Below the pieces are notes generated by a model, which was given only the letters and a program-made list of their open reading frames with translations, did not search any database and was not told where the DNA came from. A stretch of 64,000 nt of DNA from Phormidesmis priestleyi BC1401 (lineage in GTDB: Bacteria > Cyanobacteriota > Cyanobacteriia > Leptolyngbyales > Leptolyngbyaceae), in NCBI RefSeq assembly GCF_001650195.1, contig NZ_LXYR01000024.1, positions 1-64,000 of the forward strand. The letters are read 5' to 3'. Below are positions 5,144 to 29,698 of this stretch, piece after piece. The position numbers and the translations under genes are program-made. Positions within the stretch are counted from its first letter, which is position 1. Each line of letters opens with the position of its first letter.

Positions 5144-6603
5144 CCTGTGATCGAGTGCGATACTAAACGCTGATTATTTTTTGAATCGAACCATTGTTTT
5201 AGTTGATCAATCGGGTGTCGATCCACAAATATCTTAAACGATTCATCTAGCATTCGCTGCTGTTGATAGATTTGTAATATCTGCTCGATTAAAGACAGGA
5301 CTTCTGAAGTATTCACCGATCGGATTCTCCGACCAAACGATGATTCTCTGCTGCCCACATAAACGTCGTAGCCCTCGATCGTCGCATTCCCCTCTTTCAT
5401 CGCAATCCCAACCAGCGCAATATCACTAGGAGTCTGTTGGGCACAAGACTTTTCGCACCCACTGAAATGAATATTCAACGGCTGATCTAAATGAGCAGTT
5501 AATCCTACCAACATCAACGCCTGAGTTTGAGTGTCCGTCAGCCCTGACGCGCATCCGGTTTGACCCGAACAAGCGACTAATGCACTATCAAAGCGAATCG
5601 ATGAGATGTGAAGTCCTAAATTAGCGATCGCCCCTTCCAAATTATCTAAACGATCGTCAGAAACATCGGGAATCAAAATCGTTTGCCACGGAGTCAGACA
5701 CAATTTGCCACTTGCAGAATGCGTTAACTTAGCTAACTCTCTCAGTTGCCAAGATTCTAGACGACCTAACGGCAACGCGATTCCGACATACGACAAACCT
5801 GGTTGATTTTGCGAATGAATGCCGAGGTGGTGATAAGACGGAGACGACAACGGTAGAAAAGAAGTTTCTCGCTGTAATGAAAATCCTAACAACTGTTCCA
5901 CTCGTTCTAAGCAATGTTCAACACCCCAACGCGATAAGAGATCGCGAAATCGAGGTTTACGACCTTTGCCAGAATAATAGTCTTGAGTATAGTCAAGATA
6001 TATTTGAGTTAACGCCATGACAAACTCTAAACACTGATGTTCTGGAATGAAAACACCAACATCTCCAGAACGGTGTCCGTCTACATTCAAACACACTCGA
6101 AAACCAATTTCTGAAGACGGCGATCGGTGAGCGACTAGCGCGATATCATTGCGGCGATCGCGCACCGAAACCAATTCTCCGCCATCAAAGCAAACGCTAA
6201 ATTTAGCTGATAGAGCCGCCCACTCAGAATGACTTTGCAAATAATCATCAAATGCTTTCACCCACGGACGAGTATCGATTAACATCTGCAAATCAATGCC
6301 AGCCGTCGGACTCGCCATAATATTGCGAATCGGGTCAAGACTAGTGATGTTTGCCGCTAATCCTAATGTTTGCAACCGACGAAAAACATCAGGCGCGATC
6401 GGAGTCTGAATCTCTCGAATCTGCACGTTTGCTCGATTCGTCACTTGCACATAGCCTGCCCCAGACTGATCTGCGAGATCGGCGATCGCGTTACACTGTC
6501 GATCGGTGAGAATTCCGCCCGGAATCCGCATTCGAGCCAGCATTCCATCTTGGGCAGACGAACCAAAAAATAAACCCGGACAAGTCGGTAACTCAGACAG
6601 CAA
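5140..6603 (-). CDS. cobG: Precorrin-3B synthase (sulfite-reductase-like)
   Basis: 487-residue protein with two nitrite/sulfite-reductase half domains. A CX5C pair (CSGQTGC, about residue 346) and a CX3C pair (GCEKSC, about residue 384) provide the ligand pattern for siroheme and a 4Fe-4S cluster. CobG is the oxygen-dependent monooxygenase step making precorrin-3B in the aerobic pathway. The reading frame begins at TTG (6603). A strong GGAGGA lies about 10 bases upstream and no in-frame ATG is nearby. First gene of the operon, directly behind a cobalamin riboswitch. A related sulfite-reductase-like protein with another role is possible, but the cob neighbours argue against it. Confidence 0.88.
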   Translation of the reverse strand: MLSELPTCPGLFFGSSAQDGMLARMRIPGGILTDRQCNAIADLADQSGAGYVQVTNRANVQIREIQTPIAPDVFRRLQTLGLAANITSLDPIRNIMASPTAGIDLQMLIDTRPWVKAFDDYLQSHSEWAALSAKFSVCFDGGELVSVRDRRNDIALVAHRSPSSEIGFRVCLNVDGHRSGDVGVFIPEHQCLEFVMALTQIYLDYTQDYYSGKGRKPRFRDLLSRWGVEHCLERVEQLLGFSLQRETSFLPLSSPSYHHLGIHSQNQPGLSYVGIALPLGRLESWQLRELAKLTHSASGKLCLTPWQTILIPDVSDDRLDNLEGAIANLGLHISSIRFDSALVACSGQTGCASGLTDTQTQALMLVGLTAHLDQPLNIHFSGCEKSCAQQTPSDIALVGIAMKEGNATIEGYDVYVGSRESSFGRRIRSVNTSEVLSLIEQILQIYQQQRMLDESFKIFVDRHPIDQLKQWFDSKNNQRLVSHSITG

Positions 6604-6611
6604 TCGATCAG

Positions 6612-6765
6612 TCTCCTCCCTGTGCGACGCAGGGAATCAAAGGTTATTCTAGACTCGGCATTCTGACTTTCACAGTTGCGGCACAGCGTCGGAATCACAC
6701 CGAACTTTCCCAAGCCTAGATCTATGAACGTTACCACACGCGACTCACCAGATTTCCTGAATCCT
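6612..6765 (-). promoter_or_regulatory. Cobalamin riboswitch upstream of cobG
   Basis: On the minus strand the leader holds the conserved cobalamin aptamer core. GGGAAAGTTCGGTG is followed by ATTCCGACGCTGTGCC and the B12 box GCCGCAACTGTGAAAGTCAG (B12 box at about 6661-6680). Downstream, a CCCTG-loop-CAGGG hairpin (6618-6634) abuts the GGAGGA ribosome-binding site of cobG. The loop-5 element CTGTGC (minus strand, 6681-6686) is complementary to GCACAG in that hairpin (6620-6625), as expected for the kissing-loop translational switch. Outer limits are approximate. Binding of B12 is expected to shut off cobG translation. Confidence 0.92.
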
Positions 6766-27643: not shown

Positions 27644-29071
27644 ATGGCTGAGACAGCACAAGAAATTCTAAAGATGATTGAGGATCAGAATATTGAACTG
27701 ATTGACCTCAAGTTTGTAGATCTTTATGGAATCTGGCAGCATTGTACGTTTCACAAAAGCTTAATTGAGGAAGAATCGTTTCTCAATTCTGGTGGCGTAG
27801 CCTTCGATGGCTCTAGCATCCGAGGCTGGAAAGCCATCAACAGCTCTGACATGGCGATGGTGCCCGACCCCACAACTGCTTGGATGGACCCTTTCATGGA
27901 AGTGCCCACTCTAAGCATGGTTTGCACGATCGTAGACCCTCGCACCGGGCAGATGTATGAACGCGACCCTCGATCGATCGCCCAAAAAGCCGTTGACTAT
28001 CTCATCTCGACGGGCATTGGCGATAAGGTCTTCTGCGGACCTGAACCCGAATTTTTTATCTTTGATCATGTTCGCTATGGGCAAGAGGGTCACACGGGCT
28101 ATTATGCCGTTGATTCGAGCGAAGGGGCTTGGAACTCAGGCAATTCAGACGCTAGCGGCAACTTGGGCTTCAAAATTAGCAAGAAGCGCGGATATTTTCC
28201 GACGGCTCCTTCAGATATGCTGCAAGACATCCGAACTGAGATGCTGCTGACGATGGCAAAATGCGGGGTGCCGATCGAGAAGCATCACCACGAAGTCGCT
28301 GCTGGCGGACAGTGTGAACTAGGCATTCGCTACTCTGACTTGGTGCACGCGGCTGATTATGTGATGACCTACAAATATGTCGTCAAGAACGTCGCTCGTA
28401 AACATGGCAAAACAGCGACCTTTATGCCCAAACCAATCCACGATGACAACGGCTCTGGAATGCACAGCCATATCTCAATCTGGAAGGATGGACAACCGTT
28501 GTTTGCAGGCGATCAATATGCAGGCTTGAGCCAAATGGCGCTGCACTTCATCGGCGGTTTGATCCGACACGCGCCTTCACTTTTGGCTTTTACTAACCCT
28601 TCGGTGAATTCTTACAAGCGATTGGTTCCTGGCTTTGAAGCTCCGGTGAATCTGGCATACTCGGCGGGTAATCGATCGGCATCGATTCGGATTCCGCTCT
28701 CTGGCAGCAATCCCAAAGCCAAGCGGCTAGAGTTCCGATGTCCTGACGCGTCGAGCAACCCTTACCTCACGTTTGCGGCGATGCTTTGCGCGGGTCTAGA
28801 TGGCATCAAAAACCAGATTGATCCGGGCGAACCTCTAGACGTAGACATCTACGAAATGAGCAAAGAGGAATTGGCAAAAGTGCCCAAAGCTCCTGCTAGT
28901 CTTGCCGAAGCGCTGGCGAATCTGGAGAGAGATCACGAATTTCTCACAGCGGGCGGTGTCTTCCCCGAAGACTTTATCTATAACTGGATTGCGATGAAGA
29001 TCGAGGGCGAAGTCAAGCCTATCAGCAAATTGCCGACTCCCTACGAGTTTGAGTTGTATTACGACTGCTAA
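27644..29071 (+). CDS. glnA: Glutamine synthetase type I
   Basis: 475-residue GlnA, condensing ammonium and glutamate to glutamine, the main ammonium-assimilation step. Beta-grasp domain (about 15-100, with [12 protein letters not shown]), catalytic domain with EPEFFIFD, the [15 protein letters not shown] nucleotide-site signature and the NRSASIRIP loop. Ribosome-binding site AAGGAG lies 7 bases before the ATG. It is preceded by an NtcA promoter and followed by a terminator, then by a glutamine riboswitch controlling a small protein gene. Cyanobacterial enzymes of this type are usually inactivated by small IF proteins rather than by adenylylation; no IF gene was recognised here. Confidence 0.98.
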
Positions 29072-29143: not shown

Positions 29144-29252
29144 GAATAGGTTGCAATGGGTGTGATGCCAAATTGATCTACGGGGTTGATTCTTAAATTT
29201 TGTAAAATTAGGGTTTTCTGGATTCAATTTTGTTATATTGGATACAGAAATC

Positions 29253-29332
29253 AATCGTTCATCTTCTTCAGAAATCGAATTTGTTCTGTTTTTGAAGAGA
29301 CGGAAGTAGGGAAGTCCCGAAGGAACGCGCCT
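29253..29332 (+). promoter_or_regulatory. Glutamine riboswitch (glnA RNA motif)
   Basis: The leader of the 50-residue gene matches the cyanobacterial glutamine riboswitch. ATCGTTCATC opens the closing stem, GACGGAAGTAGG (about 29299-29310) and CCGAAGGAACGC (about 29318-29329) are the conserved core and 3' strand, and CGTTC pairs with GAACG. A -10-like TATATT (29234-29239) lies just upstream, so transcription would start about at the aptamer. In characterised cases glutamine binding turns expression on; this is expected but not shown here. Confidence 0.9.
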
Positions 29333-29366
29333 CCTGTTTACTACAACTTTTCAAGAGGTAAGCGCC

Positions 29367-29519
29367 ATGAAACGGTTTAACCAACCCAACAAATCTCAGA
29401 TCGTAGACGTGAGTGATGACACCGTTGCATTCATGCTGGCTAACGGTTTTTCTACAGACGGAAACTGGTATAAGTGGCACAAAAATCGCCATCAGCAGCC
29501 CAAAGTGACTGATCACTAA
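29367..29519 (+). CDS. 50-residue basic protein under glutamine riboswitch
   Basis: Small gene starting ATG at 29367 with AGAGG about 8 bases upstream. The product starts MKRFNQPNKSQIVDVSDDTV, has a central FMLANGF-type motif, and ends in a tryptophan- and histidine-containing basic tail (WYKWHKNRH). The length (50) and the control element are reminiscent of PirA, a 51-residue PII-interacting regulator of arginine synthesis known from Synechocystis. The sequence identity could not be checked, and it does not resemble the IF7/IF17 glutamine synthetase inhibitors as remembered. A role in feedback on nitrogen assimilation is inferred from the riboswitch and from glnA 295 bases upstream. Confidence 0.75.
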   Translation: MKRFNQPNKSQIVDVSDDTVAFMLANGFSTDGNWYKWHKNRHQQPKVTDH

Positions 29520-29573
29520 AAGACTGCGATTTTGAAACTTCAAAATTGACTCACGATTTTAATTCTTGACTTT

Positions 29574-29607
29574 GGCGATCGCACTTTTCAGCGATCGCCA
29601 TTTTTTA
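29574..29607 (+). terminator. Terminator built from two HIP1 octamers
   Basis: GGCGATCGC (29574-29582) pairs perfectly with GCGATCGCC (29591-29599) across an 8-base loop, followed by ATTTTTT. A strong intrinsic terminator 55 bases after the small gene, each arm containing a HIP1 octamer. Confidence 0.85.
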
Positions 29608-29698
29608 TTACAAAATCTGCAAATAGTGCATGATACTGACTCCTAAGATTCGTTACACTTAGTTACAAGTCGTCGATCGCGAGTCTCTTAAAGTCATC

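What the first reader, a model, noticed from the sequence alone, without database searches (positions are those of the whole stretch)
29234..29607. Glutamine riboswitch drives a 50-residue protein next to glnA
A glutamine aptamer with intact core (GACGGAAGTAGG, CCGAAGGAACGC) precedes a tiny basic protein gene, closed by a HIP1-built terminator, right after glnA. The usual riboswitch targets are gifB or nitrogen genes. This protein resembles neither IF7 nor IF17 by eye and could be a PirA-like PII-binding regulator or a new feedback factor on nitrogen assimilation. The aptamer is seen; the identity is inference.
Basis: partly seen in the sequence, partly recalled or inferred. Interest (0 to 1): 0.75.

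Follow-up and report, generated by a model that had tools for sequence, protein, structure and literature searches.

The report
Glutamine switch on new tiny protein
A glutamine-sensing RNA switch in a cyanobacterium sits in front of a gene for a new, conserved protein of about 50 residues, found so far only in genomes with an unusual glutamine synthetase and no detectable copy of the known inhibitor proteins of that enzyme, which makes it a candidate replacement brake on nitrogen assimilation.

Summary
The glutamine aptamer is an RF01739 match at 29254-29331 (53 bits, cut-off 35); a 50-codon gene follows at 29367-29519, then a HIP1-type terminator. The protein matches no IF7, PirA or DUF4278 model. 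It is a real, rare family: strong matches in 5 of 388 class genomes, all 5 behind a glutamine aptamer, mainly synonymous changes. glnA is adjacent in 2 of 5.

The context is the surprise. All five carriers have GlnA from a distinct clade (86-96% identical to the window's; best other GlnA listed 76%), spread over three families. No genome of that clade has an IF7 match (0 of 15), against 76 of 77 other GlnA genomes of those families. An aptamer plus small ORF lies 238-381 bases behind glnA in 6 of 15 of these loci, 0 of 38 others: two carry this protein, four a DUF4278/PirA-like protein.

Best reading: a glutamine-induced brake on nitrogen assimilation in a lineage that changed GlnA and lacks classical inactivating factors. 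GS as target is inference (about 0.35): ten of 15 variant-GlnA genomes lack the protein.

The parts
29232..29245 (+). Degenerate NtcA-type box GTT-N8-TAC (consensus GTA-N8-TAC, recalled), overlapping a possible -10 element TATATT at 29234-29239
   Evidence: a perfect GTA-N8-TAC lies within 100 bases upstream in 82 of 110 aptamer loci scanned, mostly 24-33 bases before the aptamer's GTTCA; this locus matches 5 of 6 positions. Binding and promoter activity untested; the sigma-70 scan found nothing.
29254..29331 (+). Glutamine riboswitch aptamer, type 1 (Rfam RF01739)
   Evidence: 53 bits, cut-off 35, E 8.1e-9, model positions 1-53 of 53.
29327..29365 (+). Putative expression platform: GCGCCUC at the 3' edge of the aptamer pairs with the ribosome-binding site region GAGGUAAGCGC (GAGG 29355-29358)
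   Evidence: minimum-energy fold (whole leader z -0.48, not unusual); over 111 aptamer-ORF pairs own anti-SD/SD duplexes average -12.25 kcal/mol, swapped -11.05; 0 of 2000 shuffles as low; this family's own duplexes are weaker than average (-10.3 in three, -8.8 in two).
29367..29519 (+). 50-residue basic protein (pI 9.3), new narrow family
   Evidence: strong homologues in 5 of 388 class genomes (own included), 58-84% identical to this one; 22 invariant positions; mainly synonymous changes.
29573..29610 (+). Intrinsic terminator with two HIP1 octamers and a T tract
   Evidence: Of the other four carriers, G001 has a similar HIP1 terminator, G198 a different one; the script found none in G008 and G256.
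27644..29071 (+). glnA, glutamine synthetase of the variant clade (475 aa)
   Evidence: 84-96% identical to GlnA of 14 other genomes; best of the other GlnA listed 76%; one branch with SH-aLRT 100.

Best explanation
A type 1 glutamine riboswitch controls translation of a roughly 50-residue protein of a new, narrow family. When glutamine is high, the aptamer folds and frees the ribosome-binding site, so the protein accumulates under nitrogen excess. It then acts as a brake on nitrogen assimilation. The likeliest target is the variant GlnA found in all carriers, whose genomes lack a detectable IF7/IF17 inhibitor. Shown here: the aptamer, the conserved coding gene, the aptamer-gene pairing, the variant GlnA clade and the absence of IF7-model matches there. 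Inferred: glutamine-ON control (by analogy with gifB), the brake function (about 0.65) and GS as target (about 0.35).
For: RF01739 aptamer. Five of five homologues sit behind an aptamer, in two cyanobacterial families with different gene neighbours. Selection: G198 against G256 9 synonymous and 1 non-synonymous change over 37 codons; G000 against G001 16 and 5. Anti-SD/SD pairing matched locus by locus over 111 pairs. All five carriers have the variant GlnA, one branch with SH-aLRT 100. IF7 model NF052599: 0 of 15 variant-GlnA genomes, 76 of 77 other GlnA genomes in families f1, f24 and f26 (recounted). Within genus g78, two genomes have variant GlnA and no IF7, three have other GlnA and IF7 (for one of the three, G142, GlnA identity was not printed). 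Aptamer core behind glnA: 6 of 15 variant loci, 0 of 38 others. Precedents in print: the gifB riboswitch turns IF17 synthesis on with glutamine (PMC6316151 and PMC11288750, passages), and gifA lies next to glnA in Nostoc (PMC11288750, abstract and passages).
Against: Ten of 15 variant-GlnA genomes lack the protein by the profile search, so it is not needed by that GlnA. It is not adjacent to glnA in 3 of 5 carriers. No similarity to IF7 by profile comparison; for the three f1 members none above shuffles. The NtcA box is degenerate in all five loci, unlike most glutamine-riboswitch genes, and their anti-SD/SD duplexes are weaker than average. The leader does not fold better than shuffles. The AlphaFold model is weak (mean pLDDT 65, pTM 0.37) and matches no solved fold (best Foldseek E 3.8). 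No expression or binding data exist here.
Confidence: 0.5

Rival explanations
1. The protein acts on PII or another nitrogen-control protein (NAGK, PipX, a transporter), not on GS, as PirA does.
For: PirA is 51 residues, basic and accumulates after ammonium addition (PMC8092223, passages, section 13 and part of section 5). Non-adjacency to glnA in 3 of 5 carriers and absence from 10 of 15 variant-GlnA genomes fit a target other than GS.
Against: Not homologous to PirA; all five carriers also have PirA-model matches, so the PirA role is not vacant. Among the genomes searched it occurs only with the variant GlnA.
Confidence: 0.25
2. The variant GlnA clade simply has no protein inhibitor. Loss of IF7 and gain of this protein are separate events, and the protein does something else when glutamine is high.
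For: IF7 is also absent from the 10 variant-GlnA genomes without the protein. Glutamine riboswitches also drive unrelated small proteins: 14 of 111 pairs are neither DUF4278-like nor this family.
Against: The slot behind variant glnA repeatedly holds a riboswitch-driven small ORF (6 of 15 against 0 of 38), as expected if it encodes a partner of GlnA.
Confidence: 0.25
3. The protein is a highly diverged inactivating factor that keeps only the GS-binding core of IF7.
For: G198 has KNRQQS and G256 KNRQQA, where 5 of the 11 IF7 sequences read KNRQQS; 8 of 400 (G198) and 9 of 400 (G256) shuffles score as high.
Against: The f1 members lack the full string and score like shuffles (173-294 of 400); 15 and 19 of 345 real protein segments score as high as the f24 members; profile comparison finds nothing. 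The motif was noticed after the fact.
Confidence: 0.08
4. The ORF is spurious and the aptamer leader is an orphan or acts as a small RNA.
For: The ORF is only 50 codons long and matches no known family.
Against: Conserved in five genomes with mainly synonymous changes, a conserved start and SD.
Confidence: 0.02

Closest known systems
gifB/IF17 with its type 1 glutamine riboswitch (Synechocystis)
   Same: Same aptamer class in the 5' leader of a small nitrogen regulator; translation-level platform likely.
   Different: IF17 is DUF4278 plus an IF7-like part (PMC6316151, passages); this protein matches neither model, and its genome has no IF7-model match.
gifA/IF7 beside glnA (Nostoc PCC 7120)
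   Same: Small protein gene directly downstream of glnA.
   Different: gifA is on the opposite strand, NtcA-controlled, and its mRNA is antisense to glnA (PMC11288750, abstract and passages); this gene is on the same strand with a riboswitch, and no homology was detected.
PirA (Ssr0692), PII-interacting regulator
   Same: About 50 residues, basic, nitrogen-excess logic.
   Different: No match to the PirA model, no profile similarity.
DUF4278/PirA-like proteins behind variant glnA (G113, G124, G156, G294)
   Same: Same slot: glutamine aptamer core 238-381 bases behind a variant glnA.
   Different: 133-142 residues, DUF4278 domain (all 7 members of A5) plus a PirA-like C-terminus (two scanned, below the cut-off); profile comparison with the 50-residue family aligns three columns.

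Membership tests
Type 1 glutamine riboswitch (RF01739) | Covariance-model match over the full aptamer with conserved core | tested here: met
   53 bits against 35, positions 1-53 of 53.
Type 1 glutamine riboswitch (RF01739) | Binds L-glutamine and changes expression | not testable with these tools
   Needs in-line probing and a reporter.
GS inactivating factor IF7/IF17 | IF7 domain (NF052599) | tested here: not met
   No hit for the protein and none in the genome at E up to 1e-3.
GS inactivating factor IF7/IF17 | Conserved arginine core (consensus KNRQQSMLSR) | tested here: inconclusive
   KNRQQS or KNRQQA in the two f24 members only; KNRHQQ or QSRHQQ in the f1 members; weak against shuffles.
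GS inactivating factor IF7/IF17 | Binds and inactivates GlnA | not testable with these tools
   Needs purified proteins.
PirA | Match to NF050139 or to a PirA profile | tested here: not met
   No hit; hhalign aligns one column.
DUF4278 proteins | PF14105 domain | tested here: not met
   No Pfam hit at E up to 10; no member of the family hits it; proteins from other aptamer loci do.

The most novel reading that the evidence does not exclude
The 50-residue protein is a new class of glutamine-synthetase inactivating factor, unrelated to IF7/IF17. It evolved or was recruited, together with DUF4278/PirA-like proteins in sister lineages, into a glutamine-riboswitch cassette that serves a horizontally spread variant GlnA after loss of the classical factors.
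Probability: 0.3. Interest if true: 0.82.

Novelty: new variant of a known kind. Interest (0 to 1): 0.62.

Why it matters
Inhibition of cyanobacterial glutamine synthetase by IF proteins is described as common in cyanobacteria apart from marine picocyanobacteria (PMC6316151, passages). Here is a GlnA clade, spread over three families, whose genomes have no detectable IF7 domain, with riboswitch-driven small proteins placed directly behind glnA in several of them. That makes a testable case of one regulator of a central enzyme being replaced by another, and it adds a non-DUF4278 target to the glutamine riboswitch.

Tried and rejected
PirA homology: rejected. DUF4278 homology: rejected. Mobile origin: no relative in plasmids, phages or viral contigs. 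A third genome-contig hit (L117, an Oscillibacter MAG, 14 residues matched) was treated as chance, as were the weak hits in G223 (E 0.004, the sixth genome) and G227 (E 0.013).

Fold: the AlphaFold model is weak; Foldseek against the PDB found nothing (6 matches, best E 3.8). The profile search of PDB sequences gave only matches at E 0.59 or worse. A faint UBA-like resemblance recurs around residues 20-38: Pfam UBA_5 in 3 of 5 members at E 0.11 or worse, below its cut-off, and p62/sequestosome UBA at E 1.1. Foldseek does not support it; I treat it as chance. Other sub-threshold hits of single members (GoxA E 0.047; Holin_SPP1 0.1 and ChiW_Ig_like 0.049) likewise. One IF7-domain sequence has no PDB relative.

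GlnA triad: I compared the C-terminal region where, from recall, three residues set IF sensitivity (E419, N456, R459 of Anabaena). The triad is not kept in most IF7-bearing GlnA of family f1 either (by eye), so it does not separate the clades; 15 clade-diagnostic sites (K415, A416, P441, L463 among them) are listed without a functional claim.

IF7-like core motif: tested against shuffles and real protein segments, weak.

Full report
OBSERVATION. The window lies in genome G000, 5.55 Mb in 213 contigs. A genome of the same genus that carries the gene is Phormidesmis priestleyi ULC007. Rfam's covariance model RF01739 matches 29254-29331 at 53 bits (cut-off 35). A 50-codon ORF starts at 29367 behind GAGG and ends at 29519. 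A terminator with two HIP1 octamers follows at 29573-29600. glnA ends at 29071.

THE PROTEIN. The window protein has no match in Pfam or NCBIfam at E up to 10, or in PHROGs at E up to 1. Homologues were found in 3 of 42 genomes of the family. In the class, 6 of 388 genomes match at E up to 0.01: five at E below 1e-17, and G223 at E 0.004, which I treat as chance. The five are G000, G001 (P. priestleyi ULC007), G008 (Leptolyngbyaceae CSU_1_3), and G198 and G256 of another family (f24). The matching of G001 and G008 to names rests on equal contig lengths. The five share 22 invariant positions; the conserved core reads NKSxxxxVSxxTVAFMLxxGFxTDGxWYxW. Over 37 codons, G198 and G256 differ by 9 synonymous and 1 non-synonymous change, G000 and G001 by 16 and 5, so the gene is coding and under purifying selection. 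The four proteins whose pI was computed are basic, pI 9.2 to 9.7. AlphaFold gives two short helices at low confidence, and Foldseek finds no match in the PDB (best E 3.8).

THE SWITCH. All five ORFs follow an RF01739 aptamer, though their genomic neighbours differ. G000 and G008 have glnA upstream. G001 has glnA on another contig but shares the downstream methyltransferase with G000. In G198 and G256 glnA is on another contig. So the aptamer and the ORF form the conserved unit. Of 114 aptamer matches listed gave an aptamer-ORF pair (checked): 92 DUF4278-like by a YRG motif, 5 this family, 14 others. The 3' edge of each aptamer pairs with the ribosome-binding site of its own gene better than with those of other loci (mean -12.25 against -11.05 kcal/mol, 0 of 2000 shuffles as low). 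That fits translational control, as described for gifB (PMC6316151 and PMC11288750, passages). The five loci of this family lie on the weak side (-10.3 in three, -8.8 in two). Whole leaders of G000, G001 and G198 do not fold better than shuffles. A perfect GTA-N8-TAC (NtcA box, consensus recalled) precedes the aptamer in 82 of 110 loci scanned, and boxes with at least 5 of 6 letters occur in 88% of loci against 41% of single-base shuffles. In this family the first half-site is GTT (three f1 loci) or GCT (two f24 loci, read by eye, since the script picked other spots there). NtcA control may thus be weaker here than in the DUF4278 genes.

THE GLNA CONTEXT. Fourteen other genomes have GlnA 84-96% identical to it: 13, and G256, a fragment, at 86%. 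The next best listed is 76%. The 15 form one branch with SH-aLRT 100 in a quick tree of 53 GlnA. They lie in families f1 (3 genomes), f24 (10) and f26 (2), next to many genomes with the ordinary GlnA, which suggests horizontal spread (inference; no species tree was built). The IF7 model NF052599 hits 233 of 388 class genomes at E up to 1e-3, but none of these 15. In the same three families 76 of 77 genomes with other GlnA have it; the exception, G027, is 85% complete. These counts were recounted from the printed lists. For part of the 77 the identity was not printed and the E-value alone places them with ordinary GlnA. Two further f24 genomes, G299 and G304, have a GlnA match of unprinted identity and no IF7, and are left out. 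Genomes are not independent; a naive hypergeometric value is 2e-16. One genus, g78, contains both states: G156 and G279 (variant, no IF7), G142, G174 and G245 (other GlnA, IF7; G142 by E-value only). Lack of IF7 is not confined to this clade: 155 of 388 class genomes have no match.

THE SLOT BEHIND GLNA. An aptamer core (GAAGGAACG) lies 238-381 bases downstream of glnA in 6 of 15 variant loci and 0 of 38 others, within the 900 bases looked at (G279 had 1 base held downstream, and two of the 38, L168 and L163, had 85 and 436). In G000 and G008 it drives the 50-residue protein. In G113, G124, G156 and G294 it drives a DUF4278 protein with a PirA-like C-terminus. Among the 15 genomes, 5 have the 50-residue protein, 6 have that DUF4278/PirA type behind an aptamer (linked or not: G113, G124, G156, G227, G274, G294; my grouping by alignment), none has both, and 4 have neither (G091, G152, G188, G279). 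The two types are not similar to each other.

INTERPRETATION. The simplest account is that the protein is made when glutamine is high and slows nitrogen assimilation, like IF17 and PirA. Restriction to genomes with an IF-less GlnA clade and the slot behind glnA point to GlnA as target. Against this, ten variant-GlnA genomes lack the protein and three carriers have it away from glnA. I put brake function at about 0.65 and GS as target at about 0.35. It is not a member of the IF7/IF17, PirA or DUF4278 families by the tests made.

LITERATURE. The review PMC6316151 (passages) says the aptamers are mainly associated with DUF4278 genes and that most strains bear IF7-like factors. PMC8092223 (passages, section 13 and part of section 5) describes PirA. 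PMC11288750 (abstract and passages) shows gifA next to glnA in Nostoc; its supplementary synteny figure and gif table were not seen. PMC7760959 was seen in passages. Klahn 2018 on the riboswitch is not held, so its list of target genes was not seen. Searches of the held library for inactivating factors with Leptolyngbya, with horizontal transfer, and for Phormidesmis with glutamine synthetase (listings only) showed no title or start of abstract on this protein or on an IF-less GlnA clade; the papers listed there were not opened.

Noticed in passing
window 6648-6720 (-): AdoCbl-II cobalamin riboswitch (48.2 bits, cut-off 36.5); downstream minus-strand ORFs starting near 6543, 5134 and 4508 look by eye like cobalamin-synthesis genes (CobG/CobH/CobI-like).
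   Followed up: partly
G000:C8:68902-68966 and C71:4342-4427 (L058, L059): The genome has two more glutamine aptamers, the second below the cut-off at 33 bits. Both drive DUF4278-like proteins with PirA-like C-termini.
   Followed up: yes
aptamer loci: A perfect NtcA box GTA-N8-TAC lies before most glutamine aptamers (82 of 110 loci), typically 24-33 bases upstream and running into TACAGA (75 of the 84 loci with TACAGA): a conserved NtcA-plus-riboswitch promoter cassette.
   Followed up: partly
L047, L063, L071, L091, L096, L105: A family of about 140 residues (MKTQWQRYKELELLPE... YLESEAEVHIWLEERLYH in L096) follows glutamine aptamers in several genomes of the family; the one member scanned had no Pfam or NCBIfam hit.
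   Followed up: partly
L041, L075, L084: Very small, by eye membrane-spanning, proteins (42-53 residues) behind glutamine aptamers.
   Followed up: no
36 genomes: PirA-model matches occur in 34 of 36 genomes (over the cut-off in 30), several of them as C-terminal parts of DUF4278 proteins behind glutamine aptamers. This supports the N-terminally extended PirA-like proteins that PMC8092223 thought might be false annotations.
   Followed up: partly
G007, G010, G015, G024, G031, G034: Family members without a GlnA match (E up to 1e-120) also lack IF7; G002 (82% complete) lacks the GlnA match but has IF7. They may rely on GlnN, which was not searched.
   Followed up: no
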